DNA of 64,000 nt from Azorinus chamasolen (Eukaryota; Mollusca; Bivalvia; Cardiida; Solecurtidae). Shown here piece by piece: positions 12,089-40,850 of the stretch. The position numbers were made by a program, and so were the translations under genes. Numbering within the stretch: the stretch's first letter is position 1; every line of letters starts with the position of its first letter. The stretch covers positions 67,949,472-68,013,471 of the forward strand of contig OY755237.1 of assembly GCA_963576725.1 (NCBI GenBank), read 5' to 3'. The notes beneath the pieces were generated by a model. It did no database searches, was not told the DNA's origin, and saw nothing but the letters and a program-made list of their open reading frames with translations.

Positions 12089-12639
12089 TATATTTACAGG
12101 TACACACAACGGTTTCATACTTGGTGATTCTGGATACGCCTGTAAGAACTATTTGTTGACACCATTCATCAACCCACAGTCGCCTGAACAAAACAGATAC
12201 AACACCAGTCTATGTAGAACAAGAGTCCTGATAGAACAGACCTTTGGTATAATAAAAAAAAGATTTCCTGTACTTCATTTTGGCATACGTTCCGACCCTA
12301 GCAAGGCTATACAATACATATCATCATGTGTTATTCTTCACAATATTGGAATAACACATGGTGATATTGTTGAACATGACAATGACATTGTTGGCAATAC
12401 TGACCATGTACGTCATGTTGTCAACAATGTCATTGAAACTGGCAACAATATGCGTCTGCATATTGTTGAAACATTTTTTTCTTAATCCTTTGACAAAGCA
12501 ATTGAAAACAATTTGAATATTGAAAAATGACTTGGTTCTTATTGCAATTATGAACGAATAGCCTAGCCTATTGATATGTATAAATTGATTTTTTCCTACA
12601 CAAATATTTACAGAATCAAAATCTAAAAGTTTAAAAATG

Positions 12640-19533: not shown

Positions 19534-22500
19534 AGAACTACCAAAACGAACCTCGATATCGGCAACATGTTTTCGTCGATTTTGATCAAAATAATCGCAT
19601 TCAAACAGACAGTGATTTACATCATAGTTAAACATGAGGCCACATTTTGAACAAAGTGATTCACGCCTGTATGAACACATTCTAGATATCATGTTTATAA
19701 CACTTCATGCGCGGTTGTTGTCTACATAGCTGCCATATACTACTATCTGTAAAAGTCGGATGGATCCAGAAAAATTGAATGTATTCCTCTGCAGAGGTTC
19801 GATCATACCAAGATCTCTCTTCAAATTCACTTATGCTTTTAACCACAGCGTTTTTCCACGCATGCTTAGAGAGAAAGTCTCCTGTATCAACATAGGTGTA
19901 CAAAATATTCAACAAATCATACTTCCTGAGTACTGATACAATATCACTAAAGTATCCTGGTTGTACATGATTACACAAACAACTCGCATACATACGAGCC
20001 AAGAATATATCCTTGACACGTGACTTGACCGGTAGTCTAGAGAGTTGTCCAAACAGTGTAAGTTTCATTTTGTCAATCTGTGACTGAATTGAGTAAAACT
20101 TTAACAAACTCAATGCAATGTCAGTACGTGTTCTCTTACTGACACCCTGAATATACTTTATACAAAATCGATGGCTTCTTTCCAGAAATAAAATATCAGA
20201 ATCAGTAAGGTTATACCACATTTCACACCCATATAAACCTTTCGGTAAAATGACAGATCTATAGATTTTTCTACATGTAAATGGATGGATCCCTTCATCA
20301 AAACCAATACCATATGGATCTAAACTTAAAAACGTTCCCTTGATTTTGGCATTTGATTCTCTAATATTTTCCGATAAACTGAGGTACTTGTTAAATGTAA
20401 TACCTAAATGTGTATAATTCTCAGAATCGTTTACAATATCATTACCCAAAAACCATTTTCTTCTTGAACTCTTAAAAGCACCTTTTGATTCATTACAGAC
20501 AATAACAGCTGACTTAAGTGGGTTGTATTGATATCTCCATTTGCAAGCATACTTATAACATTGCTCCATCATTCTGTCTAAACCAGATTTAGTCAGTGCT
20601 ACTAGAACCATGTCATCCGCTGATGCAATAGCCGGGACAGGAATCTGGTTGACTGCAAAACACGTATAATTTTCTTCGAGTTCAAGAAGAAGACCGTTTA
20701 TGAAACATAAGTATAGGAATGGAGAGGTAACCCCACCCTGTCTAGTACCAACATTTATGCAGAATAACTCAGACTTAAAGCCATTGTACAATAAACAGCT
20801 TTCTAAATCTTCATATAAGCTTACTATCGCTCTCCATGAAAGTACGTTCAAACCAATGTAATGAAACTTATAAAACAGTCCATTATACCACACCTTATCA
20901 AAGGCAGTTTTAACATCTAGAAAACAAACGAACATCTTCGAGTTTAACTGTCGCGCATAGTATGCACATTCACGGAGAAGGAAAGATGACATCGTACAAT
21001 TTATACTTTTCTGAAACCCACCTTGCAATGGGCTCACGCTAACATATATTTCAGATTTGATCCGACTTAACAGTACTCTTTCGTAGAGTTTCAAAATTGA
21101 CGAGCACAAGGTGATAGCTCTGTAACTAGCCGGGTCATCTTTCCTTTTCCTACCACCCTTATATAGGGTAATGATAGTCCCACGTTTCATACTAGCAGGA
21201 ATATAAGACAATCTTAACATCATGTTATATAGGTCTCCTAGTAAGCTAAGTAGGCATTCACCGCCATGCAAAATATGTTCGTTATAAATTGAATCAGGAC
21301 CACAAGCTTTACCTTATTTCAAAAACTTAAGTTCAGCAACAATATCATCTACAGATATAGGAACAAACGTGACGTCATCAGTCACCCGTTTTTTCAAATC
21401 GTGAACAACAACATCAACCTGATCTCGGAAATTAGAGTCATAAAACGGCATATCAGTGACTGAGAACAGTTCCCTGAAATATTGCCCCCAGTGATAAACA
21501 ATATATTTCGGGTCTCGATATGTAACCCCTTTGAAGTTAATCTCTGGGTTCTTGCTTCCATGCGCTTTCTGTTTGCGCTGGTTAAATTTCTTCCAAAAAT
21601 AAACAGAATCAATATCAGCAGCAGAATCAAGCTCTTCATTCAGTCGTTTAAGATAATTTTCGGAACATATCCGGTGATATTTACGAAATTTGCGCTTACA
21701 ACTTTTATATTCTCTATAGTATTTATTATCCTTCATTCTAGGTCTACCTTGTTCAATCCAAGCATTACGAGCAATACGCATCTCATAGTGCAAACATTTT
21801 ATATCTTCGTCCCAAAACGGTTTAAGAAATGATCTAAAGTTCGCTTTTCTAAATGAAACGTCCGCAGCAGAATTGATAGCACAGCAAATATCGGAGTAGA
21901 TCTTATCAACTAGTTCTCTGGGGTTTCCACTGCTAGAAACCACATGACTGTCTATATATGAACGCTTCTCAGACAAAACATCCTGGTAATTGCTAAGTTC
22001 ATTTTCTGCTACACATTTTCATTTTATCGGCTTAGAACTAAGACTGTTACTGACAGAATCGAAATAGGGAGGCACAGTAAATGTACATTGAACTGGCCTA
22101 TGATTCGACACATTCAGAGCAGCATCATCTAGTATCTCACATGACTGAACTAAGTCTAACATCTCTAATGGACATAATACATGGTCGATAAGAGACTCGT
22201 TACCTCCATCATAGGACACGAAAGTCGAATAAGCACCTTTACATAGCGATAGTGTATTCAATGCTATCAAGTTATTACGTGTCAGCAAGTTAGTTAATAA
22301 CGTGATTCTGCTATAATATGTTTGACGAAGTTAGACCCTTGTAGGTGAGCATTGAAATCATCTAGAACTATAACTTTACCTCTTTCACTTAGACTATATA
22401 CAATATCATTTATCTTATCAATATACTCCCTGTAACAAACAATGCCATTATTAATGCTAGAAAAATACACCTGTATGAAAAACATAAAGCTATTCCTATG

Positions 22501-22625
22501 CAATTGCATTTGCACTCCTACTAAACGGTCATCTTCAAGTGATAGTGGTACAATAAGTCCTGAGTACATCAATGCCACGCCCCCTTTACCGTACCGCCTA
22601 TCTGTTACGTATAAGATAACACTTT
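19534..22625 (-). pseudogene. APE-type non-LTR retrotransposon (LINE) ORF2, decayed and 5' truncated
   Basis: In order on the minus strand: an endonuclease region (22625-22019) with GKGGVALMYSG, VIVLDDFNAH and LIDHVL...NHRPV; a linker; then reverse transcriptase (21976-19682) with FLDVKTAFDKVW (motif A), GTRQGGVTSPFLY (motif B) and ASADDMVLVA (the ADD motif C); and a C-terminal Cys/His knuckle SLCSKCG...HCLFEC. Endonuclease residues have drifted: GDFN reads DDFN, and SDH reads SNH. The frame is broken by TGA at 22019-22021, TAA at 21314-21316 and frameshifts near 22290 and 19687. The 5' end is cut near 22625 and the 3' end by the Harbinger boundary at 19534. It is inactive. Confidence 0.9.
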
Positions 22626-23215
22626 TTTAAAAACTAACCGGGACAGTGTTACATAGTTAAGTGGATAGTTTTGCATGTCTGGATTTATTTCAACCTTCAA
22701 GTAAGACTTCACTATAATTCATTCATTTTCAGTGGTTTGGTTTTAATCATTTCTGGGCCCAATGTTTGACTCGCATTAAGCGAGAATTCGCTTTAACAAA
22801 GTTCGCTTCATAATGATTAATTTTCAAATCTACATGTACCCTATATTATCCTGTCACGTGCCCATTTTCCTGACGTATAACAAGGTGACAGATAAACTTT
22901 TTGTTATTATGTCAGTTGGTCACATGACCTGTAGCCGGAACTACTTTTTTCACCGAGGCGCTTATTTCGTGAATACACAAATTACGTCTACCGAGTACTG
23001 AATAAAAAAAGTTTAACAAGGCGATTTTGTTGATTTCAATCGATTCCCATTAAACCAAATAATTATTTCATGTCATTTCCCCTAACTTGTATTATTAGAT
23101 CTAGTTGTTTGTCGCGAAATTACTGTGTTTAGATAAGACCACATCAAGAATCATCAAACGTCTATCGTGTATTCTATAGTCCGTTCTATTTTTATTCTAT
23201 CGGCGTCTGTCAAAA
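22626..23215. other. Upstream region of the Crypton gene
   Basis: Between the truncated LINE and the Crypton start. A short inverted repeat lies near 22772-22815 (CGCATTAAGCGAGAATTCGC, then TTCGCTTCATAATG). No clear promoter motif and no ORF with coding character. Confidence 0.4.
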
Positions 23216-25433
23216 ATGTCAATTGCTTACGGATCGTTCGATATGCGATTAGAGGATTTTTTGCCTCAAGATGAGCCTGTGCAACCAGATGAAAGCAAAA
23301 ACCAGCCATCCAAAGAAGTAGATTTAATAGAAGTAAGCAGAGAACAGTTTAACACTGAATTTGGAATTGATATAAACAGTCTATTTTCACCAATGGAGGA
23401 AGAGTCCCCCAGCCCATCTGAAACAAGGAACCAAGAATTCTTGGAAATTTCGCCAGAGGACGTAAGAAAATTGATTGAAAATGAAGAAAATACAAACACA
23501 TTAAAGAAAACTCTTTATGACTGTTCTAAATTTGAACGCTTTCTTGCACAGAAAGGGGAAAACCAGCCCATGGCCAAGATTGAGCCTGAGGCTTTAGATG
23601 AATATTTAGCCAATTTTATCCTATCCATCAAAAAATCAGACGGTGAAGATTATGAACCGACTAGCATCAGAAACATAATCAGCAGTATAGACAGAAAACT
23701 AAAGAGACAAAAGTACCCGCATAGAATAATTGGGGAACAGTCCAGTGTCTTTCAATTAAGCAGAGATGCATTAAAGGCTAAGCAAAAATCATTAAAAAGA
23801 CTAGGAAAAGGCAATAAACCTAAGAAATCAAGCCCAATAACTGATGAAGAAATCAACATGCTATATGAAAAAGACATTTTAGGGAGAAACAATTCTAAAG
23901 CACTTCTAAACACAATCTGGATGAACAACTGTATCCAATTTGGTCTGAGAGGAACAAAAGAAAACTACAACCTCAGGTAAATTTGTATGATTTTTTTCAA
24001 TTGATCAAACAGATATTTAGATATTTCATTAAACACTTTTGGCAATTTAAATGGTGATTTTTTTTATTATTTAAATATAGGATCTGTTATTTATAAGGCG
24101 ATGTTTGAGACAAGCTGATCTGAACCGAGTCTATAATTGAAATTTTATTAAGCAAGCCTTGGTATTTGATTTTATAGAAAAAATTCAAATCTACAATAAA
24201 TTTAGGAACAACATTAACATGCATTTTTACTCCTGCTGAGACTCGAACTCAGAACCCCTTCTAAGCCAAAACAAAATGTGCAGTGAGCCCGAAGGTGTTT
24301 TACCAGTTAAACTACAGGAGCGTACTACATGAACATTTGTGTTGTCCATAAATTTTCTGTAGATTTTTCAATGATTTAATTTGTGATTATTGAAAAAAAG
24401 TCCCACTTTAGAATACAATTCTTTTAATTTAAAAAATACAATTTATTTCAAAAGAAAGCACAACGAAATGCCAAAATTGGTGCTGGATGTTGGAATTTCT
24501 TGGTTTCTCATACTTTAATTATTCCAAAAATGTCATTTATAATTTCAAAAAATCTAACATTTCACAAATGTGAATAAGTTTGTTATTATAAGACATATAA
24601 GTGCAAGAAAAAACCTCATTGATTACAAATTGCCCTGTTCATATCAAATAAAAATATCATTATGATCAGATTTAAAAGTTTATTCATATCTTAGCAGATT
24701 GTAGCTTGCTTAAAACTAGCTGATATCAAAGCCCTAAGAAATATTCTGCTTTAAATGGACACCTGTCTTCAATACTAAGTTTTACATGCAAATGAGCTGC
24801 AGGTAAGATTTTTTTTGTTCAATTTACAAAAATCCTTAATTCACCATCAAACCCATTTTTCTTACTTTTAGATGGGGAGACATTACATTAAAGAAATCTT
24901 CTGATGGCCTGGAGTACCTCGAATTAACAGAACGTCAGACAAAGACCAGGACTGGCGCAAATGTTACAGATGTACGGGAGATCACTCCTAAGATATTCGC
25001 CACCCCTGCTGACCCAGATAGATGTCCAGTCGAGACATACAAACTTTATATGGCAAAGAGACCTCAGGATTTTTGCGAATCCAATCACCCTTTCTATATA
25101 TCTCCGCGCACTTCTTCACAAAGAAATTCTAATGAACTTTGGTTCATGAAATCTGTGGTTGGGGAGAGGAAAATTGGGGAATTGCTAAAAAAAATGGCTG
25201 TGGATGGTGGTTTGGATGCCTCAAAACGTCTCACAAACCATTCCACTAGGAAACATTTGGTACAAAAATTAAGAGACGCAGGAATAGCGCCAACAGACAT
25301 AATGCAGATCAGTGGTCACAAAAACATCCAATCTGTGATGAACTATTCTGCTATGTCTGAGCAAAAACATAAGGAGTGCTCAACAATTCTGTCCAGCAGA
25401 TCCAAACCACCATCTAGTCACCTGTTTAGGTGA
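23216..25433 (+). CDS. Crypton-type tyrosine recombinase (two exons)
   Basis: Exon 1 is 23216-23976 (donor CAG|GTAAAT); exon 2 is 24872-25433 (acceptor ACTTTTAG). Joining gives Arg254 across the junction and a 440-residue frame. An acidic N-terminal 80 residues precede a helical core-binding domain (about residues 95-170, from TLYDCSKFERFLAQ) and a catalytic domain with the full tyrosine-recombinase set: Arg245 (QFGLRGT), His377 and Arg380 (NHSTRKHL), His403 (ISGHKN) and Tyr412 (VMNYSAM). Cryptons are DNA transposons that move by this chemistry, and relatives have been domesticated as host genes. The frame stops at 25431-25433, but a typical Crypton tail continues in the next frame (see 25434-25713). 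The start ATG follows a long stretch without coding signal. Nothing else in the window encodes a recombinase. Confidence 0.88.
24229..24321 (-). tRNA. tRNA-like sequence in the Crypton intron (pseudogene or SINE head)
   Basis: The minus strand folds as an acceptor stem GCTCCTG/CAGGAGT, a D arm GTTT/AAAC, a possible anticodon stem CCTTC/GAAGG and a perfect T arm CTGAG TTCGAGT CTCAG. The anticodon region is 29 nt and has no U at the expected loop position, so I cannot assign an anticodon. It is either an intron-bearing or decayed tRNA, or a tRNA-derived SINE head. Confidence 0.4.
24322..24871. other. Remainder of the Crypton intron
   Basis: AT-rich intron sequence ending in the polypyrimidine stretch and acceptor at 24860-24871. 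No gene, hairpin or repeat seen. Confidence 0.5.
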
Positions 25434-26210: not shown

Positions 26211-26591
26211 TCTATATAAGCGTTTGACCGTGGAATTGATTTTGGGTGATTAAACGTACAGGCTGAGAAAAAATGGAAGAAATAACACCGATATACAAAT
26301 AATGTGTATCAAGATATACTGTTTGCGTCATTTACTGTAAAAGTCATATAATGTGGCCACCTAAGTGACCGATGGTTTTGGCATATTACCTATGCAAACA
26401 TTTTAGAACTTGATGAGATGCCAAGTAACTCCACGTCTCATGAAGATCTGAACTACAGTTACTATTATTATGGTCGTTTCTTAACAAAAGAGGAAAATGC
26501 TATCAGTGAAAATTACAGCAGATGACAGATCTCCAATAGTTTATGTAAATATCGTCCGGTTTCGCTGTCTGAAAATAAACACCGAACTATT

Positions 26592-26842
26592 TTAACCCTT
26601 TCGGCGCCAAATTTCTATTAATTTTGTAGTCTGCAATCCAAATTTTGTTAAATCATTCGGTACAATAAGGAAATGAGATAAATAAATGCAAATTTCAAAG
26701 AAATAAAGCACATATATAGAAATAGAGAATGAGAAAAAAGTGAAGTCCCTGATCAGACACCGCCTTGAAAAGGCGGCGTCTGATCTGAGACTGCACTATT
26801 TGTCGTGGTGCATTTATGCGACATCGGCGGTGAAAGGATTAA
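26592..26842. mobile_element. TTAA-type MITE, family F
   Basis: TTAA at 26592-26595 and 26839-26842; ends CCCTTTCGGCGCC and, from the right, TCCTTTCACCGCC. The hairpin at about 26751-26785 is GATCAGACACCGCCTT / AAGGCGGCGTCTGATC. A second copy is at 44705. Confidence 0.85.
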
Positions 26843-27214
26843 CGAATTTAGCCCGCCGCAAATCTATACATAGTAATTTACAATTTCTGCCAATTTCTAA
26901 ACTGGCTACAATGTCCTACCCGCCATATTTCATTATAACTATTGTTTTTACTAATATTCAGTAGGTATTGATATTTAGAGTAAATATAGAACAGAAGGAT
27001 TAATTAATAAGGTGTCGGCAGTGTAAACACAGACTAGAGGACTCATATTTAAACCACCGTCCAGGGTCTACCTTGTTCGTCGACACGAACTTTTTACCGA
27101 AAGTCACGTCGGAAAAATAAATATCGCAGAAATAGCCTTCAAAATGATATGCATAAGGAGTCATACACTATCAAAGCACATAGATGTATTTGAACGGGTT
27201 CTCTGAGTAAAACA

Positions 27215-27392
27215 GGGTCCATGCTTATAAAGCTTTTAGTTGAGTCTGAGTTTCGTTCTCAAGCTTTTGATTGGTCAGATTTGAGTTCTCAAGCTTTTGA
27301 TTGGTCAGATTTGTGCCCTTGGCTCAAATCTGACCAATCAAAAACTTGAGAACGAACTCAGACTCAACTAAACGTTTTATAAGCATGGACCC
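27215..27392. mobile_element. Hairpin element, family G
   Basis: 178-bp palindrome starting GGGTCCATGCTTATAAAGC and ending TTTTATAAGCATGGACCC. Arms contain TTGAGTCTGAGTTTCG and the phrase TTTTGATTGGTCAGATTTG, which is duplicated in the left arm. A second copy at 55593 lies inside a family A' element. Confidence 0.85.
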
Positions 27393-28720
27393 GGGTAAAT
27401 ATGAGCTAATAAATACAGTGTTTGTGGCGGAGAGAGACATGATGCAATAATGCTGTCTAGTTGTGCATGTATAGATAACACTCTGAACAAAAATAAAAAG
27501 TAATGATATTTTACTTCATGTATTGACACATACAGTAAATAATCGCATATTCGAACTATCAAAAACGTATTCTGACTTAGTATCGTTCATCGGTCTTTAA
27601 GGGAAGTGATAGCTGAATGCAGACATGGAGAAAGTCATTACGGTAAGCTCTACCGGGAACTTTTTGCATGACTTCACCATGCATTAAGCAGCCATTTAAC
27701 TCACTTTTTCTTTAAACCTTGCCTAGTTCAGTATTCATTTAAGAAATTATACAGCATGAATATTTATTGGGCGATTTTTATAATGTAAAAAATTCGAAGG
27801 AATTCTTTGCTGTGACAAAACAATAGAATCATCAATACGACGCCATAAGCAAACAGAGTAGACCTTGACCAAGCGTCAGCGTGAATCAAATTGAAATCGA
27901 AAATAGACTATGTATAAACAACTGACCATTCTTGACATAGTTTACTGCATATCTAGAGACAGTGTTTGGACTAAATATAAATGGGTTAAAATAGTTTAGC
28001 CCAAATCTATTCCAGGAAGGGGTCAGGGAAGGTTGAAAAAAAATGACTGTTTCCATATTGAACAACGAAAGTTTAAAATTGACTGGGCTCACACCATATA
28101 CCTTTGCATAATTCAGAACGGTAGTAGGGAGATAACTCTCATTCTATCTAAGAATCTAGTGTTACAGGATTGGTTCCCTTGAAGATCGTAAAAGAAATGT
28201 CATATGCTGTATCGATTTCGTCAATGCCAAAATTTGACCGAAAGCCAAATATATACATGAACTTTTAATACAAAATGTGATATTAAAATTAAAAAAAAAA
28301 TCCCAAACACTTTAAATGCTGGTGGATATTATTTAATTTTATTTTTTAAAAAAATATATAAATTTAACTTTAACCTTATAAATAAAATTAAAATTAATAA
28401 ATGTCCGTATAGTATTGAAAAAGCTATAAACAACAAACAGGTTAGGACTCACTCAACCGTCATAAGTTCTGGTAAGATGTAACTATGTCATTTCGTCAAC
28501 ATTAACGTGGGAAGGCAAAGTCAAGTGGCCTCCAACGCGTAATATTAGTATAATAAAACTATTCGATAAGAGTCAAACTTTCAATCAGACATATTTTCTC
28601 GAGAATTTGGGAACCGAATCTCCCCTCTTCACTAGTTTGAAAAGATGAATAATTCATTTGACATTGGCTGTAATAATTGGTCAACATAGACCTAAAAGTG
28701 AGAATAAAACAGGATTACAT
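27393..28720. other. Intergenic, eroded fragments only
   Basis: A decayed family D element lies at about 27595-27705 and a family A fragment at about 27845. AT-rich sequence follows. No gene seen. Confidence 0.45.
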
Positions 28721-28733
28721 TTACTTCAACTAG
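28700..28733 (+). other. Possible 5' non-coding exon end with strong splice donor
   Basis: TTCAACTAG|GTAAGT at 28725-28739 is a consensus donor upstream of the RING gene. The preceding sequence has stops in all frames, so it would be 5' UTR. The exon start is unknown. Confidence 0.35.
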
Positions 28734-28972
28734 GTAAGTTTTCAGCTATTGTCTTAATATATTGTTGGAATGATAGTATTACATAACACTGTTTCAATGT
28801 AATATGCATAAGAAACAGTACAATCATGTTTTAAAATGAAAACGAAACAACCTTTACTAATTCATTTCAACGTAGATTGAAATGTGTTGAACCATACGTT
28901 CTACCATTTGCTGTTCTTTTTTGTCATGGTGCTGTTCTAGCGGCGGTGTTGTTTGCATGTGGTGTTTCCTGC

Positions 28973-31106
28973 ATGACTCATACAGGTACTTTTACTCTTT
29001 GATTTGTTATTATAGCAGGTGTGATGATCGATGTAGTGTACATAGTCGCCGGTGCTATCAGCTTGGGCTACATGCAATATCATTTGAGTTTGAGCTTTCA
29101 ATATGGTGGAGAGAGACTTGTTGGGCCTGATAGTCAAGAACTGGTAATGTTTGCTTGCATTCATGATCGGAATGACGAAATGGCATTGACATTATTGGGC
29201 GAGCTTGAAGAAGATTTGGGCATTCGTATGTTTTTTATAAATAACATGTGGAATCCGACCCTTTTCGACAATCTGAGCATTATGACCTGGAGCAGAATGC
29301 TTCAGGAAGAGGGGAATCGAGCTGAGGTCTACCAAGCAAGAAAGCGAAAAAAGCCCAGTGGCATCATTAGAGGTACACATTACTTATAGGATATACTTTC
29401 TATAACTTTATAAATGTATTGGAGATATTGCGAAACCTTTTTACCTATCTATCTGTTATATCGGATTTGTGAAATATGTTGTAAAGGTGCACGATTGTTT
29501 ATTTCCGGAACGCCCAATTTAATCTGATGTAAATATTTTAACCGCTTACCTGATAGAGCTACATTTTAACGTCTTGGTAAATACTGAAGTCCCAGACAAA
29601 TAGTTCCTGTAGAATTTGATATATATTACATATGCAGTTATATTATTAGATTCTATATTTGTTGTTTATAGTTTATTATGACAATTTAGCAAATAAATAT
29701 TCGTGATGTAATTAGTTTTTACATGAAGAAAAGGTATATTTTATCATTAACCCTGCCTTATAAATATTATGAAAAGTTCCTGTTGAAAAGCAGCAACTGT
29801 GTTTTACAGCTGCAGTACACAAAACGTGCATTGGGGAAAGATTAATAGCTGCATGCTCCAAATGGTTTGAAATCCACTTCAATTCTTCTTTGCCCAACAC
29901 AGCTAAAGACAAACTGAATGCGTCTTTCAACTATTTGGCGTTTCAAGGTGACATACGTAATGACACGTGTGATGTCTACCCTGTCACGAGTGTTGGGTTT
30001 GAAGACGATCTGTACATGGACGGTAATAATATGAATAATGTACACGAACCAACATCAGTGACCGAATCATCTGCTTCACCTGCTGTAACATCCGAACTAT
30101 CTGCAAGTGGATCAGAGGAGCATAATTTCCAAAGGAGGACAGAGGAAGAAATCGATGCGACTGACAGTGCACGTGGGCGGGCAGATCAACACCCAGTCGA
30201 GAGACTCACTCTTACATCGACAAACCCGTTAAGTATGTATGTAAATATATAAATCATCGTTAAGACTAATAGTGCTATTAAGTTTTAAATTCTCCTCAGT
30301 ACCTAAGTATCTGGTGTAGCTTACTTAAATATGCATTTCGTTTTGTAAATAATCTTATAACCAAATATTTAGATGTTAATATAGCTCAGGTATTTGCCTA
30401 CCCAAATAACATGATGTTTGCCTTTAAAGATGAAGAAACATACACGGATGGAATAGCTATACAGGACAGGCGCGAATCACTGCCTTTGGCCGTTGGTCTG
30501 AACGTCGAATCGTCCGATTCACATGACCCAGCATTCGAACAACATATACGAGGAACAGAGGGACACAATTGGCTAGGGAGGTCAGAAACAGAAAGCTATA
30601 CTGCTGACGGTGCACATGGAGGAACAGATCAACATCCTAACGGAAAAGCAACTCTTGCTTCATCAAACGCGCTCGGTAGGTATAGTTCATGAGTAACGCT
30701 ATCTTGGTCTACTCTATTTGCATTTATGCGCAGAAACCACGTCTAGATACCTTCTTTTAACCCATCCTGTTTTGTTTTCAGCGAACAGGTGAGACCCTGA
30801 TGAGATGGTTGAATCGCAAAAGCGGAATTATGATTAAGGCAAGCGATGACGGCCTGTAACACAGTATTGTATTTCGTAAACACCTTTCTTTTTTTTCCAG
30901 ATGAATCTACTCTAGACCTATTAAGGATCGAAAATCAACGATTGAAACAAATTGGTATGTGTACAGTGTGCAAACATGAAGCAGTGAGCGTTGTGTTCAT
31001 ACCTTGTGGCCATTTTGTTACATGTTGTAAGTGTGCCGCAGTGCTGAAAAGCTGTTTCATTTGCAGAAAAGCAATTGTCAGAAGAGTACTTGTGAATCGA
31101 CATTAA
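28973..31106 (+). CDS. IAP-type RING protein with hydrophobic N-terminus and a duplicated exon
   Basis: Exons (28941-)28985, 29016-29372, 29810-30232, 30373-30675 and 30901-31106 join in phase (all phase 1) to a 433-residue frame from ATG 28973. Residues about 8-28 (VVYIVAGAISLGYM) are a possible membrane segment. Residues 37-190 form a domain I do not recognise (FACIHDRNDEMALTLLGELE; later AAVHKTCIGERL). Exons 4 and 3 are related: both hold a YP...DG start, then ESS, EHN or GHN, DQHP and N-x-L near the end. The last exon is a RING of the IAP class: C386-x2-C389, C401-x-H403, C407-x2-C410, C417-x2-C420, preceded by ENQRLKQIG. This class acts as an E3 ubiquitin ligase, and bivalves have many such genes. 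The start is uncertain: an earlier out-of-frame ATG lies in the same exon at 28956. Confidence 0.75.
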
Positions 31107-31332
31107 TGTATCGTGAATCTTTTCTGCAACGACCATTCAGACAGACCCATATTTCAGTGATTAATACATGTTATACTTATGGTGTATATATAACTGTTAA
31201 TTGTAATGGCATAAAGATCAAAAGTCACGGGTGTTTGTGTGGCCCTTCTTTGACCGTGACCTCGCGTATGAGTTATAAAGGAAATGTGTTTCGGCATGTA
31301 CAAGTTTATTTTCGAAATCCGAAGCCATGACT

Positions 31333-31392
31333 CACAAACTTAAGGTTTTTGGCCTGGGGTCGAAAGACCCCAAGGCCATTGAGTTTGTAATA
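31333..31392. repeat. Hairpin just after the RING gene
   Basis: TCACAAACTTAAGG pairs with the reverse phrase ending GAGTTTGTAA; the inner stem TTGGCCTGGGGTC / GACCCCAAGGCC closes on a GAAA loop. It could lie in the 3' UTR or be a small MITE core. Confidence 0.6.
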
Positions 31393-32366
31393 TGACTGCC
31401 CACCCTTACAATGCACACAGCAATGCCGCAACAATTCTGTTTATACTTTTCTTTCCGATCCAAATCAGTGGTAGTTTTTTACAACATTCATTCAAACGCT
31501 TAATACGCAGTGGAATTGGATTATTGTTTTAAGAATTTGGCTTTTCGGTAAGGATTTATCAAGCAAAATCAAGCAGACTAAGGCGTCCACATACAGGAAT
31601 CGTCTCGTGAAAAAAGCCCGAACTACACAGTATTCTTCTTCTTCCGGTTAACTCAACAAGTAATCCCTTGTATACGCAGAAAAACAGCTAGTTTTCAAGT
31701 TAGATCTCGGAAAGAGTGTTGTGCAAATGAACAGATGAGTTTATTCAGATTCTCTTAAAAGTTCGTGCAAGTTAAATTGAGGTAAAATATTGTCCGAAAT
31801 TAATGAACGGTTGGGAAACGGCGTAGTGATTTCTTACTAAACGACCGAACGGTTCGCTGAAACACAGTTATAGGCGGAAGTTCACGAGTGTGTTAGCGCT
31901 CTTGTCAGAAACTACATGTCCCAGAGCTTAGATATATGGTGTATAGATTTACTTAGCATAACTTTTTGAGTTTTATAAGTATCATAGTTCTGGGGTTAAA
32001 ATTGACCCTGCCCTGTGTGTATATTCTTCTTTACTTCAGAAACTACATTCTAAAGGTTTCTCTTAATATCACTCTTAGCTGAGACCAGTCACTGGGAGTT
32101 CTTATGTAATCACCCTTAGCTTGATCAGTAGAGTAGAAATTGTGTTCAGACAAATAACACACACTCATTTAAGATTGAGAAAACTGTGGATAATTCTCAA
32201 AATGCAGAATACTCTTAAAGCTTTTTTCATACCTGTGCCCTGCATTAAGCTACCAGCTATCAATATAGAGCATATCTGTTGTGAATTTCAGCTTAACTCT
32301 TTGCATGCTGGGTAATTTTGTGATCTGCTAAATTGTTGTCTGCAGCATATTCACAAGTTATCCTAA
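31393..32366. other. Intergenic, no gene seen
   Basis: No coding signature. A degenerate D fragment (TGCATTAAGCTACCAGCT) lies near 32242, and a TTAA element may begin near 32291 (TTAACTCTTTGCATGCTG). Confidence 0.4.
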
Positions 32367-32786
32367 CTACACACTTTCTTTCTGAGTTTTTCAGAAGTTC
32401 AGTCTCATTGACAAACAGTTTGGATATCAGATCAGGCACCACATTATGTTGGCCCTGATCTGGATCCAAACTGTTTGCATAGGTCATTAGTGGTGGGAGA
32501 ATCCCACTACACACTTTCTTTCTAAGTTTGTCAGAAGTTCAGACTTATCTACAAACAATTTGGATATCAGATCAGGCACCACATTTTGTTGGCCCTGATC
32601 TGGATCCAAACAGTTTGCATAGGTCATTAATGTTGGGAGAATCCCACTACACACTTTCTCTCTAAGTTTTTCAGAAGTTTAGTCTCATTTACAAACAATT
32701 TGGATATTAGACCAGGCCCCACATTATGTGGGGCCTGAACTGGATCCAAACTGTTTGCATAGGTCATTAGTGGTGGGAGAATCCGC
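32367..32786. repeat. Three tandem 140-bp units, each with a family B-like hairpin
   Basis: Units start CTACACACTTTC at 32367, 32507 and 32647. Each contains CAATTTGGATATCAGATCAG or a close variant, and its partner CTGATCTGGATCCAAACTG around a CCACATTATGTGG-like centre. The hairpin and its flank were amplified together. Confidence 0.88.
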
Positions 32787-32845
32787 TTCTAGCATCCATA
32801 GAATACAAGTTCCAGTGGTCTAATGCTCTATCCATTCTTTCACTT

Positions 32846-33028
32846 CATTCTTTTAGCATCATGTTCAGGTCCTCTACAAAAGTTATATAAATTGTGTCCC
32901 TTGGGTCAAAATTGGCACCACCCCTAGGGTGTTAAGTTTTCAAAAGAAAAATATAGTGAAAACTTTGAAAATCTTCCCCTCCGATTGTCTGGTGAGCGAT
33001 GTCAGGGCCATTCTGGCCCTCTTGTTTA
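32846..33028 (-). mobile_element. Pearl-like fragment, 5' end
   Basis: The minus strand begins AAACAAGAGGGCCAGAATGG, then CGCTCACCAGACAATCGGAG, one core (TGCCAATTTTGACCC) and GTAGAGGACCTGAACATGAT. This matches the start of the copy at 18136. Confidence 0.75.
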
Positions 33029-33362
33029 AATGTTAATATAAAAGGTATTTTTACTTTATTGTTATACTTGTTTGCTATTGAAATGTGTGTACACTGCTCT
33101 GTTGCATGTAAGAAGACTAGGCACATATTTCGGTCGTCCTTCTGCATAAAGTTAGTACTAGTTGGACAGAATAACATTTTCTCCACTTTAAACAGATATG
33201 CTTATGTGCTGCCACAAGGTGGAGCCAATGTGTTATGTTATTCTCAAGTTAAAAGAACTCATTTAACTCTGATACTTCTAATAGACAGTCTCAGTTTAGA
33301 ATCAAGTCTAGTCCGTTTCTTCTTATTAAGTGATGATTTCAGCAATAAATTAACAAAATGAC
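33029..33362. other. Intergenic, no gene seen
   Basis: A plus-strand frame at 32999-33361 begins in the pearl fragment and has no recognisable domain. Not called as a gene. Confidence 0.45.
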
Positions 33363-33847
33363 AAACCGTGAAGACCCAGACCAGAGAGCTCTAGAGGAAC
33401 AGGAGCCCTCTGAACTGGGTTTGCACTGTTTGCATATTAAATGAGTGTACACGACAGGTAAAACTACTCCACTGATAGTCTTCAGAATACGTTATAAGTG
33501 CTGGGATGGGGTGTATGGAGTTGCAAAACCGTGCATACCCAGACCAGAGGGCTCCTGGAGGAGTAGGAGCGCTCTGATCTGGGTCTGCACTGTTTATTGA
33601 TTGAGTGTAAATGACAGGTAAAATACTCCACTGATAGTCTTCAGAATTAGTTATAAGTGCTGGGATGGGGTGTATGGAGTTGCAAAACCATGCAGACCCA
33701 GACCAGAGGGCTCCTGGAGGAATAAGGAGCCCTATGATCTGGGTCTACACTGTTTGCATATTGAATGAGTGTAAACGACAGGTAAAAATACTCCACTAAT
33801 AGTCTTCAGAATAAGTGCTGGGATGGGGTGTATGAAGTTGGAAAATA
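33363..33847. repeat. Three tandem ~160-bp units, each with a family A-like hairpin
   Basis: Units begin AAACCGTG or AAACCATG at 33363, 33526 and 33685. Each has ACCCAGACCAGAGGGCTCC and its mirror (GGAGCGCTCTGATCTGGGT in the middle unit), then GACAGGTAAAACTACTCCAC and GTGCTGGGATGGGGTGTATG. Confidence 0.88.
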
Positions 33848-34445
33848 GCAATCACTAACATAATATTATGAAGACTATTTTAGCTGTTGTCAACTATTCA
33901 CTGAAAAAAACAACATGTAGTTAAAGTTTATATTTAAAAAAGATAGTATTCATGAATTTTTGTCATTCACGTTTTATTTCCTTGTTTATAACCTTGCATG
34001 GATCGTTGACAACAACTTAAATAGGCTTCATATGTTATTTTAGGATTTCATTCATTGTTAACACAATCTACCCTAGTAAATAGCTTTACTTGGCATTAAC
34101 TAATAGTGTATCTGTGATAAGTACACCTGTCCTATGCAAATAGTATAAAGCCTGTCAACTGGTCATGTATTTATTATATGCCTTTATATACCACAGTAAC
34201 AAATAAATAGTTGTTTAAATCATTTCCTATCCAGAAATATTTGAGGCAGAACAAGAACTCTTTCATGCCCTCAGATATAACGCTGTGCTTATACATAACA
34301 TCACTCTTATTGAAAACGAGGTCTAGTATTTGGCTGATCAGATGAGACTCGGAAAGCTTGATATCACATAAAGGCATATAATATATACCCTTATCATTAT
34401 ATATTTCTATAAGAAGTGCTTGTGTAGTTTGTTAGATTTAAAAGG

Positions 34446-35060
34446 GGTGGTATGCAAAGATGGCAAGATTCTAAAACCGAATTTCACTTTTTTCAACCTT
34501 GTTGCATCGGATATTTTATGCCTTAGTCTGAAAAAAGTGAAAGTGGCAGGTTTTGAATATGTCATTCTTGATAAAAACCATTGAGAAGTCAATAACACAT
34601 TTGAAATATGTCTATTGTCTTTCTCAGCTTATTTTTGTGAGTTTTCTAACATGTTTTCTCTTGTTTGTACAGTTTCACCCTTGTTGCTCATGCTCAGTCT
34701 TTCTCAGTTTTGTTTTTTCTTTGTGTGTGAAATCCAAATTCCTCCTCATCTTTGTTAGATTCAAAGAGGTGGTATGCAATGATGGCAATATTCAAATCCG
34801 AATTTCTTCATTTTCAACCTTGTTGCACTGGATATTTTATGCCTCTGTCTGAAAGTGGTAGGTTTTGAATATGTCATTCTTGATTTAAACCATTGAGAAG
34901 TCAATTACACATTTGATATATGTCTATTGCCTTTCTCAGTTTTAGTTTTGTCACTTTTATAACATGTTTACTCTTGTTTGTACAGTTTGACCCCTGTTGC
35001 TCATGCTCAGTCTTTCTCAGTATTGTTTTCTGTTTTTGTATAAAATCCAAATTACACCCC
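34446..35060. repeat. Tandem duplication of a ~320-bp unit
   Basis: Copy 1 34446-34767 and copy 2 34768-about 35060 both start GGTGGTATGCAA and share CAACCTTGTTGCA, TTTTGAATATGTCATTCTTG and TTGCTCATGCTCAGTCTTTC in order. Small hydrophobic ORFs on both strands are in different frames in the two copies, so they are not conserved genes. Confidence 0.85.
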
Positions 35061-36992
35061 ATCTTATGAACGTGTCTTTTGTGCACAACTTCACCTTTGT
35101 TACCCACAGTCACATTTTACCTTTTACTCATTCAATAAAATATGTCAATCTGTTGATTTATGGAAAGTCCATGGTTCTACCAAATTGCTAAATCGTACTT
35201 AACACAGTATCTAAGTGCATCTTTTGTCTTGTACTTGTAATTTGCTTGATGTCAAAAATCATCTACATACTGTTACTATCAATATTATATAGTGACAAAT
35301 CTAAAGTTGATTTAACTGCTAGGTATTTCTTTACTCAACATGATTTAGATTTTGGTAAGACATGTCTATAGCTTGAATGACAAATAAATAGTATTTAATT
35401 GAGTAGCTCAATTACATACATTTTCTTTTTTTGTGTTTTCGTCTTGCTCGATCATACTAATGAAAGTGCCTTACAAACACAATATCATTTATTATGATTT
35501 TCATGTTAAAGATGTATGCTTTGTGATGCTGTGATAATATTTATATTGTGCCTTTCTTTCACCGGATATAATGACAGTTGTCACTAGTTGATAACTGTTT
35601 CAAAAATTTACCATTACCTTGTAAGGTCATTTCTTAAGCGGGCTGGCTATGTTGCTAAATGAGTAAATCCTTAACCCAATAACCTGTTTCTAGTTATGAA
35701 GACAGGTGTCCACTTTCAGCAGATTGAAAGTTCAGTAGAATGCGCCTAAAGGTGCTTTCTGCTTTATTTTCAGCCTACTTTAAGCTATCAACTGCTAGGA
35801 TATAGAATATATTTCTTATGGTATATGATCATGACTGTGAACCATTGAACTATGGAGGAAAATTTAATGTTCTTATATAAGAGAAAGACATCCCTTCAGT
35901 CTTCATGAATTATCAGCTAATTGTGCCTATTCATTTATGTATGCCATGGAACTTTTCTCTTCAGTACATGAGATAAAAAGGATGACATATCCATTGGTTT
36001 AGGCAAATTTCCGTTTGTTCTACTGTCTCTATCACAAACACAAACTTACATTGATAATTAATCATTTCGTGTTCAAGGCAGGTGGCATAAAATCAAATTG
36101 AGATCAAAACAGATAGCTCCTTCAGTAGCTTTCTGTCTTGCTTTTCTATTGTTATATGCTGTCGCCTGTCTTACAATCAATTAGCCTTTATTCTGTGATA
36201 GTCAGAAGGTTTTACTGAACAAACATGGACCGACCTGTAATATGCAGCTTTGTGCCAGTATTGTCTATTAAATGCAATTTCTTTTATTCTTCCCTAATGT
36301 TGATATTGAAACTGTTGCTCTGTAGTGTAAAAACTACGTATGTGTCTGTATGTGTCTTTCAGGATGTTATTCCAATAAAAGCAACACATCTGAGAAAGAA
36401 ATGTAGGAACATGTGTTTCTGAAGTTTGCAGATTCACTAATTGTTACTTTCCTTCTTGATTCTCTTTCTTTCATTTGAATGCATTTACTTTCTTTTAACC
36501 ATTTTCCACAAATTTTACCTATGTACATGATATGCGTTATACAAATACAAGTAAAAAGGTCCAAGACTGTAGTGCAGAATCCATCGTTTTTTAGGCTTCA
36601 ATTGTCCCCAAAAGCTATATCTCTCCCTCTTGGACCTCTTTTTATTTTGTAACTTTCGATTTAACTGTTACTTTCTTCAAATGATGCCATTCAAAATAAA
36701 TATACAAATCTTTATTTTGCTATCATGTTGTCTTTTGTACCTACACTAGTCAGCTTTAAGATCCCCAGGCCTTCAGCGCTTTCAGCGCTTTGATTACCTA
36801 TATGACTCGAGAAAGCGTTGACCGATGATACAAGTGCGCATGTCCACGATCAGAAACATTATATACATGCAATATAACTTGCCAGTTTCATAAGAATTAT
36901 TTTGAAACATGTGGTATTTTCTGCCAGTAGTACTTATCACATTAGAGGGGTTTTGCTCTATACACTAATATAATAACTATGCATTTCAAGTA
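35061..36992. other. Intergenic, nothing recognised
   Basis: AT-rich with only short ORFs. A short direct repeat of CTTTCAGCG lies at 36775-36791, and weak D-like fragments (CAGGTGGCATAAAATC) near 36080. No gene supported. Confidence 0.45.
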
Positions 36993-37195
36993 CAGTAGAA
37001 TATGTCTGAAGCGCCCATTAAAAAAGAGGTTTAATTATGGGTATGTAAGGCAGACGGTAGCTTAATGCATGATAAAAGTAATACAGAAAGGTCATATAGC
37101 AGCTTTCTGCATTACCTTTGACCTGCATTAAACAACTACATGCTTTTTAAGACACATATGTTCAAAAAAACAAATGGCCGCTTAAGTACATGTAG
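36993..37195. mobile_element. Tc1/mariner-like MITE, family D
   Basis: Starts TACAGTAGAATATGTCTGA. Hairpin arms are GGTAGCTTAATGCATGATAA and the reverse GACCTGCATTAAACAACTAC. The right end is eroded after GGCCGCTTAAGTACATG. Confidence 0.6.
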
Positions 37196-38089
37196 ATGTC
37201 CCTAATCATGTTACGACATGCAATATTAGAATACAATAGTATAATAACTAGGTATTTAAAACATGCAGACTGTTAATGTCTTGAATCCAGGTAACCCATA
37301 AATCTGTGTGATTGGTGTTGTCACTGTCATTGTTTCACACTGTGTTACCTCTGTAAGTCACTTATATTGATTTTAGTACATCAGAGTTATGGCTCCTTAT
37401 TTTCCAAATTATTCACTTTTTCTGTCTGTCTGGAGGCGAATCTCTCTCAGAAACGGTTTGGAATGTTTGTTTGTAACGTAGTGAAAATGTTTAGAACTAA
37501 AAGGAAATATCGCACTGCCACTCATATTGAAGTTGAGTTATGTTCCTTTATGAAATGCTCAACCTTTTTGCCCGTCTTAGTCATATCTCAGTAACTGTTT
37601 GGAGATTATCAAATCAAGTTTTTGTAAATTTTTAGTACCTTAAATAAATTCCGTCATTTGATTATTACTCAAATGTAGTTTTGAACATAGTGTTATTGCA
37701 CTTTGTTTGCAAAACAACTTTTTGTCTCCGGTCAATAATTCTGGCCTGAATACTGAGGCCAGCTCTTTTTTGGCGGTGGCTACCAATTCAGAGAAGTTAT
37801 ATCTAGCAATATGTAGAACTAATCTTATTTTGATACATGTATATAAGGTTGCATATGTATGGGTATATGTGAAATTCTTTCGATGATTTTTTATCATTTG
37901 GGTTCTTTGAGTGGAACGTATGAAGCAATAAGGCCAAACACTCAAAGTAAATGTTTCGTTTAAATGTTACATGGTATAATTTCCATAAAAAGATAATTAT
38001 TGGTAGTAAACATTGTGATTATATAATTGCTACATGTATGATTCTATCATTTATCGTCTGGAACAATAGTTTACAATTTTATACGATGT
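37196..38089. other. Intergenic, possible old repeat
   Basis: 37340-37660 contains phrases such as AGTTATGGCTCCTTA and TCAGAAACGGTTTGG, similar in style to the dispersed repeat at 42996. Otherwise no feature. Confidence 0.35.
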
Positions 38090-38308
38090 AAAACTGTGCT
38101 GGGTGGTGGATCTTGGTGGTTTGGATAACCCAATCTCTTTGAAACCACCCGAATTGCGGCTCTGGACAGCAATGTGTGTCGCATTCAGTGCCAGTTGATG
38201 TCTAAAACGCATTTCTTTGACATATTTTACTAGGACATTACTAGGCCAATTAAGGAAATGTAGCTAATAATTATCAATCATGATGACTGCTGTCTTGGCC
38301 ACAGAGTG

Positions 38309-38347
<39 letters not shown>

Positions 38348-38460
38348 GCATTGTGCTGAGTGGTGGATATAGATGGTAGGGTTAACCCAATCCCTTTGAA
38401 ACCACCCGGATTGCGGCTCGGGACAACATTGTGTGTCTCATTCAGTGTCAGTTGATCTAG
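38090..38460. repeat. Direct repeat pair around a (GT)n tract
   Basis: 38097-38203 and 38353-38456 share GTGCTGRGTGGTGGAT, ACCCAATCYCTTTGAAACCA, CGGCTC and CATTCAGTG-CAGTTGAT. Between them is (GT)n at 38310-38346. Confidence 0.8.
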
Positions 38461-39015
38461 TTTCAGTTTAGTTTCAGTTTACGATACTCCTTTGCCAATT
38501 TTGCATACTGGGTGTATATATTGGTGGTTTGTTTGTAATTTTTGTAATGCATTGTATAGTTTATATGCATTAGCTACACAATTGACCTATTCCGTAAACC
38601 CATCGTCCTACATATGTAGGGCAACATCTTATGTATAGTGTTGTATGCCATACATAAACCCAATCCTGGCTCTAGGTCGAAACTGTATGGCGTACTGACA
38701 CTGTACGTTATATAATGTTGCATTTGGGTTTTGGTGACATCAGTGGATGGACACAATATAGTCACATGTAGTATGCGTCTATTTCCCCTGGTATACGGAC
38801 ATACAAACGTACAGGAAAGGATAATTCTGTTTTATATATCATTCCTAAATTAAATCTATTTTTAATATTTTTATCGATATCTCTATCTTTAATTCCATTT
38901 GTCTTAAATATTCTATACGCATTGTATGTATTCAATTTTGTACATGCAATTCAATCATGTGAAGCGCTTTTGAACGCAAATATCCTGTGTGAAAAGAGCG
39001 CTCTATAAATGTGGT

Positions 39016-39017
<2 letters not shown>

Positions 39018-39046
<29 letters not shown>

Positions 39047-39050
39047 TGAA

Positions 39051-39088
<38 letters not shown>

Positions 39089-39098
39089 TAATAATAAA
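39018..39098. repeat. (AAT)n microsatellite
   Basis: About 26 units of AAT with two point changes. Confidence 0.97.
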
Positions 39099-39104
39099 CT
39101 ACTT

Positions 39105-39318
39105 TAACCTTTGCTTTGCGGGCCAAGAGTCACAAATGGCATTTGCATACAGTATATACCAATATTAGAGGACTCCTAGAAGATCCCTATTATTAGGGTC
39201 TCACTGTTTTTCATGTAACACTTTTCTGCTGAAAAAAACCCCCTAAATATTACCGTTAGCTTGACCTGTTCGAATGTTGGAATAGTCCATTTGAAAAGTA
39301 AACCGCAGCAAGGGTTAA
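39105..39318. mobile_element. TTAA-type MITE, family L
   Basis: Right end CCGCAGCAAGGG followed by TTAA (39315-39318); left end near AACCTTTGCTTTGCGGG. A degenerate hairpin is centred on CTCCTAGAAG (about 39150-39205). The element at 48770-48945 is related. Confidence 0.6.
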
Positions 39319-40756
39319 TATATACATGTTTCTGATTTAAACCCATGTAAAATGCATGGCTACGTTTGCGTCTGACTTTAATTCAACCTGTCTGACACGC
39401 ATGTTTCTTCGAACTTAAATCAGATTTAATCTAGCAGATAATTTATTCCGCAACTGAATATTGGCTTTGTACGCTTGGGAATATTGTCTCTGTACTATAG
39501 GTGGTAATTTGTATATAAGTTATTACTGTTCATACTTTTCTTGTTTTTAACACTTCGCCTGTTTCAGCGTAACTTTCTTGCAATAAACATATGTTGAACA
39601 GACCAGGTTGAACGTTTATGCGTGTCTGATCTAGATCCACACTGGTTGCCACGAATATTATATTACTTCAAAATATGAGGATACAGAAAACAGCATTATT
39701 TTTTCTGATGTTGTAGATTACAACAGAAAAAACAGGAATTACCTGGCATAGCATACCAAGAGTTAACTATAACACATTAAATTGTTGTCCATTATTCATC
39801 TGGATATCTGTATTATCGGAAATAATAGATCATGCCATTTCTTTATTCTGAATTCAGAATATCTTTTCCAGAAAAAATGACATACTGTACAGATGCAGAT
39901 CAGAGAGTTACATCTGCACTTCTCTTATCTGAGTCTCCGCTTAATGGAACTATTGAGAATATACCATTTCAATTTAAAATGAAATCAGATATTAAGCTAA
40001 ACCTTCGTAATGTGTTATTATGATTTGTTTGGAATGTTTTTGTCTTGTGAGGATCCTAGGAAAGATAAATTTATAGATTAATTGAGTTACTCTCAGGCCT
40101 TGCATTCATTCATTCATTCATTCCATTCGTCTTTCATAAAGATAAACAGTTTGGATCCAAAATAGGTGATGAATAACTTAATGTCTAATCAGGTTAAATT
40201 GGTTTACACTTAAACTGCATTTTTCAAAATTTAAAGCAGAGAACATTTAATTTTAACTAATAGATCTACTGAGCTAAATGACGTCACAAACATGTGGCTA
40301 TACATCTACATGAATCAGGGTCAAATGGTATTTAGCCTATGCATTTCATTTTTTCGTGCAACACTTAAGATATCTTTATTAACTCTTTGGATGCTAATTG
40401 CAAATCTAAACTATGTTAACAGATTGGATCCAGATTAGACGCAAAGTTGCTCGGAGTTTTATCAGGGCCTGAATGCGTATCCTTGAAAATTGATTTGTTG
40501 TGATGTGCATATAGATCTATGTTTTGCTGTATTGTATTTGTATGACATGGTTCTGTTTGAGGGCCTCAATGTAGATTGGGCATTATGATTTATTGAGCTA
40601 CCCTCATTAAATAAAGTATTTCATTCATTCATTTATTTATTTAGTGAGTTGTAACACTGATTCATGGTTAGAACATAATTACTGTTTTGTAATTTCTCAT
40701 TCGAAGCATATGTAAAAAATGAAAAAGTAGAGTAGATCTAGCAATTTTCCGCATAT

Positions 40757-40759
<3 letters not shown>
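39319..40759. other. Intergenic, no gene seen
   Basis: Holds eroded B/A-type hairpins (about 39595-39650, 39880-39945, 40425-40475) and short (ATTC)n tracts near 40104 and 40622. No coding signature. Confidence 0.4.

Positions 40760-40850
<91 letters not shown>
40760..40850. repeat. (TA)n microsatellite
   Basis: About 45 uninterrupted TA units. Confidence 0.98.

What the first reader, a model, noticed from the sequence alone, without database searches (positions are those of the whole stretch)
28973..31106. RING gene with a duplicated exon and an unrecognised central domain
Exons 29810-30232 (second half) and 30373-30675 are diverged copies sharing YP...DG, ESS, HN, DQHP and N-x-L landmarks. 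They are followed by an IAP-type RING but no BIR repeat. The N-terminal part (about 190 residues) has a possible membrane segment and a domain faintly like a TIR fold (IHDRND near the start, LEEDLG, then a later hydrophobic strand), but I cannot assign it. This could be an undescribed signalling E3 ligase architecture.
Basis: partly seen in the sequence, partly recalled or inferred. Interest (0 to 1): 0.75.

Follow-up and report, generated by a model that had tools for sequence, protein, structure and literature searches.

The report
BIR-less RING gene with orphan domain
A clam-like genome carries a four-exon gene that joins the ubiquitin-ligase (RING) end of an apoptosis-inhibitor gene to a front part that matches no protein family searched here; it is probably a young, lineage-specific product of exon shuffling whose function is unproven.

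Summary
The gene structure is largely as described: four exons joined by phase-1 introns (29019-29372, 29810-30232, 30373-30675, 30901-31106), a real internal duplication (0 of 2000 shuffles as good), an IAP-type RING (Pfam E=9e-11) and no BIR nearby (nearest listed BIR 2.9 Mb away). The RING exon is a standard IAP-type terminal exon of this genome: best-scoring acceptor in phase 1 in 16 of 16 other parsed loci. The N-terminal ~175 residues match no Pfam, PDB or PHROG entry. The TIR idea fails with a profile that includes 20 TIRs from the same genome; STING fails too. The membrane segment and the 28973 start are not supported. The only relative found is one 94%-identical segmental duplicate on the same chromosome, with indels breaking frame in three exons. 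Nonsynonymous and noncoding divergence between the copies are alike, and the tail aromatic residue kept by the 16 other RINGs is missing. Best reading: a lineage-specific, BIR-less chimeric RING gene made by exon shuffling; E3 activity is plausible but unproven, and decay is a serious rival.

The parts
28649..28733 (+). possible 5' non-coding exon end (donor AACTAG|GTAAGT after 28733)
   Evidence: best donor in 27.4-29.1 kb by an approximate PWM (7.2 bits); no ATG in its open frame. Left limit is only the start of that open frame. Inferred.
29019..29372 (+). exon 1; ATG 29024; N-terminal half of the unassigned domain
   Evidence: acceptor at the 99.2 percentile of window AGs, donor only at the 87th percentile; open frame 29003-29389; second copy 84% identical at protein level
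29810..30232 (+). exon 2; first half = rest of the unassigned domain, second half = linker unit 1
   Evidence: phase-1 junctions; only two copies in the genome besides weak hits to exon 3
30001..30231 (+). linker unit 1 (duplicated segment)
   Evidence: 36.6% protein identity over 82 columns with 30429-30674
30373..30675 (+). exon 3 = linker unit 2
   Evidence: duplicate of the end of exon 2; its acceptor is weak (52.8 percentile)
30901..31106 (+). exon 4: helix plus IAP-type RING and stop
   Evidence: Pfam PF13920 9.1e-11; phase-1 acceptor scoring 12.3 bits; same exon design in 16 of 16 other parsed loci
26250..31350 (.). part of the segmental duplication shared with C3:14755037-14777532
   Evidence: blastn pieces of 90-97% identity (that call lacked the DNA matching 29745-30808, which L013 covers)

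Best explanation
A lineage-specific chimeric gene assembled by phase-1 exon shuffling. Its last exon is the standard IAP-type RING exon of this genome; upstream sit a duplicated, polar, probably disordered linker exon and a two-exon domain of unassigned fold. The protein (426 residues from ATG 29024) would be cytosolic: the N-terminal domain would bind a partner and the RING would recruit an E2 to ubiquitinate that partner or the protein itself. Shown: exon structure, duplication, RING identity, exon phase, one other copy. Inferred: transcription, ligase activity, partner binding, cytosolic location. Because the aromatic tail residue of IAP-type RINGs is missing, I expect weak or dimer-partner-dependent activity.
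For: All junctions are phase 1 and in frame. RING matches Pfam and cIAP RINGs with the zinc ligands present. Own-genome search with the exon-4 protein: 70 of 100 scored candidates pass E<=0.001; after the two copies of this gene the ten best are 44-50% identical. Best-scoring acceptor is phase 1 just before the ..EN..L helix in 11 other loci and 5 more, 16 of 16 parsed; 11 of these 16 have a same-strand BIR match within 20 kb upstream, so they are IAP genes. Exons 1 and 2 occur only here and in one duplicate. PMC7831173 (section 8 and passages read) reports a single terminal RING exon and frequent domain shuffling in hard-clam IAPs.
Against: No RNA evidence. The exon-1 donor (87th percentile) and exon-3 acceptor (53rd percentile) are weak. 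Between the copies pN 0.033, pS 0.015, noncoding 0.034: no clear purifying selection. The other copy has frame-breaking indels in exons 1, 3 and 4. The Y/F tail residue kept in 16 of 16 other parsed RINGs is lost.
Confidence: 0.5

Rival explanations
1. A decaying or already non-functional gene: the locus was copied, both copies drift almost neutrally, one is frame-broken and the window copy is intact only because it is young.
For: 32 nonsynonymous against 4 synonymous changes with pN equal to the noncoding rate; three exon indels in the other copy and 18 kb of extra DNA in its 5' region; a high-copy repeat begins about 31345, 239 bases after the stop of the window copy, with no AATAAA or ATTAAA between; RING tail changed.
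Against: The window copy keeps 426 codons over four exons open; no nonsense substitution in either copy at compared codons, only indels; exons 2-4 together diverge less (18 of 925) than noncoding DNA (39 of 1155), P=0.058, though not less than introns 1-2 (P=0.58); the internal duplication is older (about 37% protein identity) and both halves stayed open; in the second copy a later in-frame ATG still leads into the rest of exon 1.
Confidence: 0.32
2. A divergent TIR domain fused to a RING.
For: Single-sequence AlphaFold2 of exon 1 gives strand 41-46, helix 51-65, strand 68-72 in its best-scored stretch (56-66 per block of ten); by-eye motifs; the first small TIR profile gave the exon-1 core 97 of 3000 shuffles as good.
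Against: No Pfam TIR match in the protein; the genome-wide TIR list (140 matches, 150 of 221 candidates scored) does not hold this locus. With 20 clam TIRs added the profile scores -0.9 bits (503 of 3000 shuffles as good) and 0.6 for the core (361 of 3000), while the 29 true TIRs, each held out, score 14-193. hhalign probability 0.02 percent. Against MyD88 147-430 of 1000 shuffles score as well, by method.
Confidence: 0.07
3. A STING-like ligand-binding domain fused to a RING.
For: My own by-eye landmarks only.
Against: Pairwise scores at or below shuffled means against three STINGs; STING profile 770 of 3000 shuffles as good.
Confidence: 0.02
4. The RING exon belongs to a different transcript from exons 1-3.
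For: Intron 3 has a GC content of 0.40, above introns 1-2, and no RNA is at hand.
Against: All three junctions are in frame in phase 1; the exon-4 acceptor is the strongest of the gene (12.3 bits); both genomic copies keep the same order and near-equal spacing; apart from mobile-element frames, the 20 other window frames scanned with Pfam give no domain above its cut-off and no BIR lies near.
Confidence: 0.07

Closest known systems
Bivalve IAP (BIRC) genes, last exon
   Same: IAP-type RING in a single terminal exon with a phase-1 acceptor and the ..EN..L helix in front
   Different: no BIR within 2.9 Mb in the listed matches; tail aromatic residue missing; N-terminal exons unrelated to any searched family. 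4 of the 16 compared loci (L005, L008, L026, L042) also show no BIR nearby in that capped list, so BIR-less IAP-type RINGs may not be unique.
cIAP1/cIAP2/XIAP RING (PDB 3eb5, 6hpr, 4ic3) and MYLIP RING
   Same: RING sequence, E 3e-11 to 6e-8
   Different: nothing before the RING region gives a significant match (N-terminal 183 residues none at E<=10); MYLIP's FERM domain (recalled) is absent
Lineage-specific TRADD-N/DED immune fusions of marine invertebrates (PMC8195603, sections 10 and 11 read)
   Same: same kind of story: lineage-specific domain fusions in immune genes, bivalves among the expanded groups; TRIM ubiquitin-ligase fusions are mentioned for one clade without naming bivalves
   Different: no TRADD-N or death-fold domain found by Pfam here; those families are large, this one has two copies

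Membership tests
IAP (BIRC) family | at least one BIR domain | tested here: not met
   Pfam scan of the spliced protein and of nine upstream + strand ORFs; genome-wide BIR search, nearest match 2.9 Mb away, 150 of 253 candidates scored; single-exon pattern scan
IAP (BIRC) family | C-terminal IAP-type RING | tested here: met
IAP (BIRC) family | RING in one terminal exon after a phase-1 intron (this genome) | tested here: met
   16 of 16 other parsed loci and both copies of this gene, by best-scoring acceptor
IAP-type active RING E3 | aromatic residue in the C-terminal tail (its role in activity is recalled) | tested here: not met
   present in 16 of 16 others, absent in both copies
IAP-type active RING E3 | ubiquitin ligase activity | not testable with these tools
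   needs an assay
TIR-domain proteins | sequence match to a TIR profile | tested here: not met
TIR-domain proteins | TIR fold | tested here: inconclusive
   single-sequence models of separate exons, pLDDT 46.9 and 51.6; no Foldseek match at E<=0.001
STING | ligand-binding domain profile | tested here: not met
STING | four N-terminal membrane helices (recalled) | tested here: not met
   no stretch in the N-terminal part is among the six most hydrophobic; one strong stretch lies in an upstream ORF that ends at a stop codon before exon 1

The most novel reading that the evidence does not exclude
An undescribed animal protein domain, confined to a narrow clam lineage and changing fastest of the gene's exons (exon 1: 17 nonsynonymous against 2 synonymous changes, 0.064 per site against 0.034 in noncoding DNA, P=0.034), serves as the recognition part of an immune RING ligase with a two-unit linker.
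Probability: 0.1. Interest if true: 0.6.

Novelty: new variant of a known kind. Interest (0 to 1): 0.33.

Why it matters
It is a concrete case of an IAP-type RING exon acting as a shufflable ending: a phase-1 terminal exon attached to sequence that is not BIR. If expressed, it shows how bivalves can make new ubiquitin ligases (or decoys that pair with IAPs) outside the counted IAP repertoire, which in PMC7831173 was selected by BIR domains (passages) and would miss genes like this.

Tried and rejected
TIR: rejected at sequence level. My first small TIR profile (9 sequences) gave a mild hint (97 of 3000) that vanished when 20 clam TIRs were added. STING: I first saw several colinear landmarks by eye; pairwise and profile tests gave no support. 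A search of the genome with the Pfam STING model found nothing, but its controls found nothing either, so it is uninformative. Caspase-like resemblance: considered by eye only, not tested. Positive selection: exon 1 looked almost purely nonsynonymous, but N against S is not significant (all exons P=0.15, exon 1 P=0.39); only exon 1 N against noncoding reaches P=0.034 (0.009 against introns 1+2), uncorrected for several comparisons. Mobile element: the sharp edges of the 2.45-kb match suggested one, but 28600-28906 matches 18 kb upstream of the second copy and the match resumes at 37350, so the edges are insertions into a larger segmental duplication. Upstream ORF 28835-29002 (hydrophobic) as a coding exon: its in-frame stop, lack of a usable ATG and the 33-nt intron argue against it. 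Relatives elsewhere: none at E<=10 in the protein database (the absence of even RING matches suggests that it holds few animal proteins), none in viral contigs (16, 17) or prokaryote genomes. Fold searches of low-confidence models gave nothing usable. PHROGs gave nothing; NCBIfam, PADLOC and one upstream ORF in Pfam gave only weak matches that I take as chance. A tblastn with three human BIRs found nothing in the window or around the second copy, but had no positive control; one search replaces it. A genome search with exon 3 did not complete.

Full report
What is there. On the + strand four exons, 29019-29372, 29810-30232, 30373-30675 and 30901-31106, join in frame; the three introns are all phase 1 (for the junctions; the start 29019 is my choice of acceptor). 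Exons 1-3 have GC 0.44-0.46 and introns 1-2 0.26-0.28; exon 4 (0.38) and intron 3 (0.40) do not follow that contrast. The open frames alone are not proof: a third-order Markov model expects 2.6 frames of 128 codons or more and 0.4 of 159 or more per 64 kb. In-frame junctions, the RING, the internal repeat and a second genomic copy carry the case.

The 5' end. An approximate splice-site score puts the best donor of 27.4-29.1 kb at 28733 and the best acceptor at 29019 (99.2 percentile), a 285-nt intron that places ATG 29024 five bases into exon 1. The splice sites are uneven: exon-4 acceptor 12.3 bits, but the exon-1 donor is only at the 87th and the exon-3 acceptor at the 53rd percentile. An upstream ORF (28835-29002) has a hydrophobic stretch (2.36), but it ends at a stop and has no ATG before that stretch. 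In the N-terminal part of the predicted protein no 19-residue stretch is among the six most hydrophobic, all of which lie in the RING exon, so I do not predict a membrane anchor.

The duplication. The second half of exon 2 and exon 3 align over 82 columns at 36.6% identity; local score 105 against 29.5 +- 5.4 for 2000 shuffles, none as good; at DNA level 60 against 18.9 +- 2.4, none of 2000. A genome search with exon 2 finds exon 3 in both gene copies at E 0.0014 and 0.010. The three introns show no similarity to each other beyond shuffles. The linker units are rich in polar residues (0.76-0.80), and exon 2 beyond its first 60 residues is modelled almost without structure.

The RING. Pfam zf-C3HC4_3 at 41.8 bits over a cut-off of 27; PDB phmmer gives cIAP2, cIAP1, XIAP, MIB1, BIRC7 and MYLIP RINGs. 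In the same genome all 150 scored candidates of 392 match the RING family, and a search with the exon-4 protein gives 70 matches among 100 scored, the ten best after the two copies of this gene being 44-50% identical. I then read the exon boundary in those loci. One search read L001-L008 on both strands, ORFs under 130 residues only: five loci, five phase 1. One search read L001-L008 and L014-L043 on the + strand only, required a strict zinc pattern near the match, and dropped repeats: 13 rows, 13 phase 1, two of them this gene. Together 16 of 16 other loci, by best-scoring acceptor; the other loci among those 38 gave no row. Of the 16, 11 have a same-strand BIR match within 20 kb upstream (L003, L004, L017, L018, L020, L024, L028, L033, L034, L036, L043), one at 53 kb (L006), and four (L005, L008, L026, L042) none in the list, which scored 150 of 253 candidates; I made this comparison by hand from the coordinates. 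So exon 4 is a standard IAP RING exon, and BIR-less ones may not be unique. All 16 keep a Tyr or Phe in the C-terminal tail; both copies of this gene lack it. That this residue supports IAP RING activity is recalled, not tested. The Pro of the last CPxC is also absent, but only 10 of the 16 have it.

No BIR. None of the 150 BIR places lies in the window or at the second copy; the nearest on C3 are at 70.93 Mb (2.9 Mb from the window) and 16.25 Mb (1.5 Mb from the second copy).

The N-terminal domain. The first 183 residues find nothing in the PDB at E<=10, and Pfam finds nothing but the RING in the spliced protein (one weak second RING model included) and nothing in exons 1-2. PHROGs gives nothing; NCBIfam gives only weak matches to the RING exon and PADLOC one at E 0.041 to exon 1, which I take as chance. 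Protein searches gave none of 6473 and none of 142 candidates at E<=10; since not even RING relatives appeared, that database seems to hold few animal proteins and the negative is weak. Viral contigs and prokaryote genomes gave none. AlphaFold2 on the separate exons without relatives gave pLDDT 46.9 and 51.6: a strand-helix-strand core in exon 1 and two helices and two strands in exon 2. These models are too weak to name a fold, and Foldseek found nothing at E<=0.001.

TIR and STING tests. A 9-member TIR profile scored the N-terminal part at -0.3 bits (273 of 3000 shuffles as good) and the exon-1 core at 1.6 bits (97 of 3000); a STING profile gave 770 of 3000. The Pfam TIR model finds 140 places in this genome (150 of 221 candidates scored), and this locus is not among them. 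I took 20 of those 140 places, joined them with the 9 references and repeated the test: -0.9 bits (503 of 3000) and 0.6 bits (361 of 3000), while every one of the 29 members, held out in turn, scored 14 to 193. Membership in TIR is therefore not met at sequence level; a TIR-like fold without sequence trace cannot be excluded.

Copies and evolution. Exon 1 has one other true match in the genome, at C3:14775182-14775515 (84% identical, broken by a frameshift; a further hit at E 1.65 has three stops). Exon 2 likewise has one. The match to 28905-31350 is 94% identical; the second copy lacks 17 bases in exon 1, has 7 extra bases at the start of exon 3 and lacks 4 bases near the end of the RING exon, although a later in-frame ATG still leads into the rest of its exon 1. 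The match extends to 26250-40767 in pieces, with 18 kb extra in the second copy's 5' region and about 6 kb extra in the window from 31350. Between the copies there are 32 nonsynonymous and 4 synonymous changes (0.033 and 0.015 per site) against 39 of 1155 (0.034) in noncoding DNA; N against S P=0.15. Exon 1 is the fastest (0.064), P=0.034 against noncoding DNA and 0.39 for N against S. Exons 2-4 are slower (18 of 925) than noncoding DNA, P=0.058, but not than introns 1-2, P=0.58. I read this as neutral-like overall with at most a hint of constraint; since one copy is broken, it does not show what happens to the window copy.

How it would work. If translated, the RING recruits an E2 and the N-terminal domain selects a partner, the linker giving reach. 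The step from RING to activity is inference from the family, weakened by the missing tail residue. A variant is a protein that pairs with IAP RINGs and modulates them. The rival that the locus is decaying has nearly as much support.

Literature. PMC7831173 (passages and section 8) describes terminal RING exons, domain shuffling and a BIR-based count of IAPs in the hard clam; PMC8917759 (passages) describes new IAP architectures in oysters; PMC8195603 (passages and sections 10-11) describes lineage-specific TRADD-N fusions; PMC8905726 and PMC9980059 (passages) gave nothing on this architecture. Searches listed no paper whose title or shown start of abstract names this domain order; the library is open-access only, so this is no claim that none exists.

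Verdict. Interest is moderate to low until RNA and relatives are seen.

Noticed in passing
own genome, for example C14:57095335-57232386, C19:23133963-23270839, C1:98786606-98923269, C13:41185006-41324786: Sets of BIR matches with identical scores (two kinds about 6.5 kb apart) recur about 130-138 kb apart at eight places on seven chromosomes, with a RING of identical score (49.0 bits) between them; a ninth RING place (C3:95588538) shows one set. This looks like a very large repeated or mobile element, possibly viral, that carries IAP genes between direct repeats. Read from the two lists by hand; not examined.
   Followed up: no
window 31345-31600 and onwards (insertion to about 37350): A high-copy repeat begins about 31345 next to a strong hairpin (within 31334-31389); 37 of 40 scored places match 31345-31600 at 98-100% identity (1913 candidates in the first look), so it looks like a young element; its end and type were not determined.
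   Followed up: partly
C3:14757087-14775066: About 18 kb of extra DNA in the second copy's 5' region, splitting the segmental duplication at the position matching window 28906.
   Followed up: partly
own genome, RING list: Many RING places share equal or nearly equal scores and open-frame lengths (20 with 189 aa, 10 with 198 aa), which suggests RING-bearing mobile elements or recent retrocopies.
   Followed up: no
own genome, TIR list: At least 140 TIR places, many in open frames of 640-900 codons, so large single-exon TIR genes are abundant here.
   Followed up: no
window 19682-22626 (-): LINE-like remnant: reverse transcriptase (Pfam RVT_1 3.8e-24) and a weak endonuclease match in separate frames.
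   Followed up: no
window 23180-25430 (+): DUF3504 / phage-integrase-like tyrosine recombinase gene in at least two open frames (DUF3504 1.7e-14).
   Followed up: no
window 12012-12485 (+): DDE_Tnp_4 transposase fragment (1e-15).
   Followed up: no
window 32366-32785: Three head-to-tail copies of a 140-nt unit, 91-92% alike, inside the inserted stretch.
   Followed up: no
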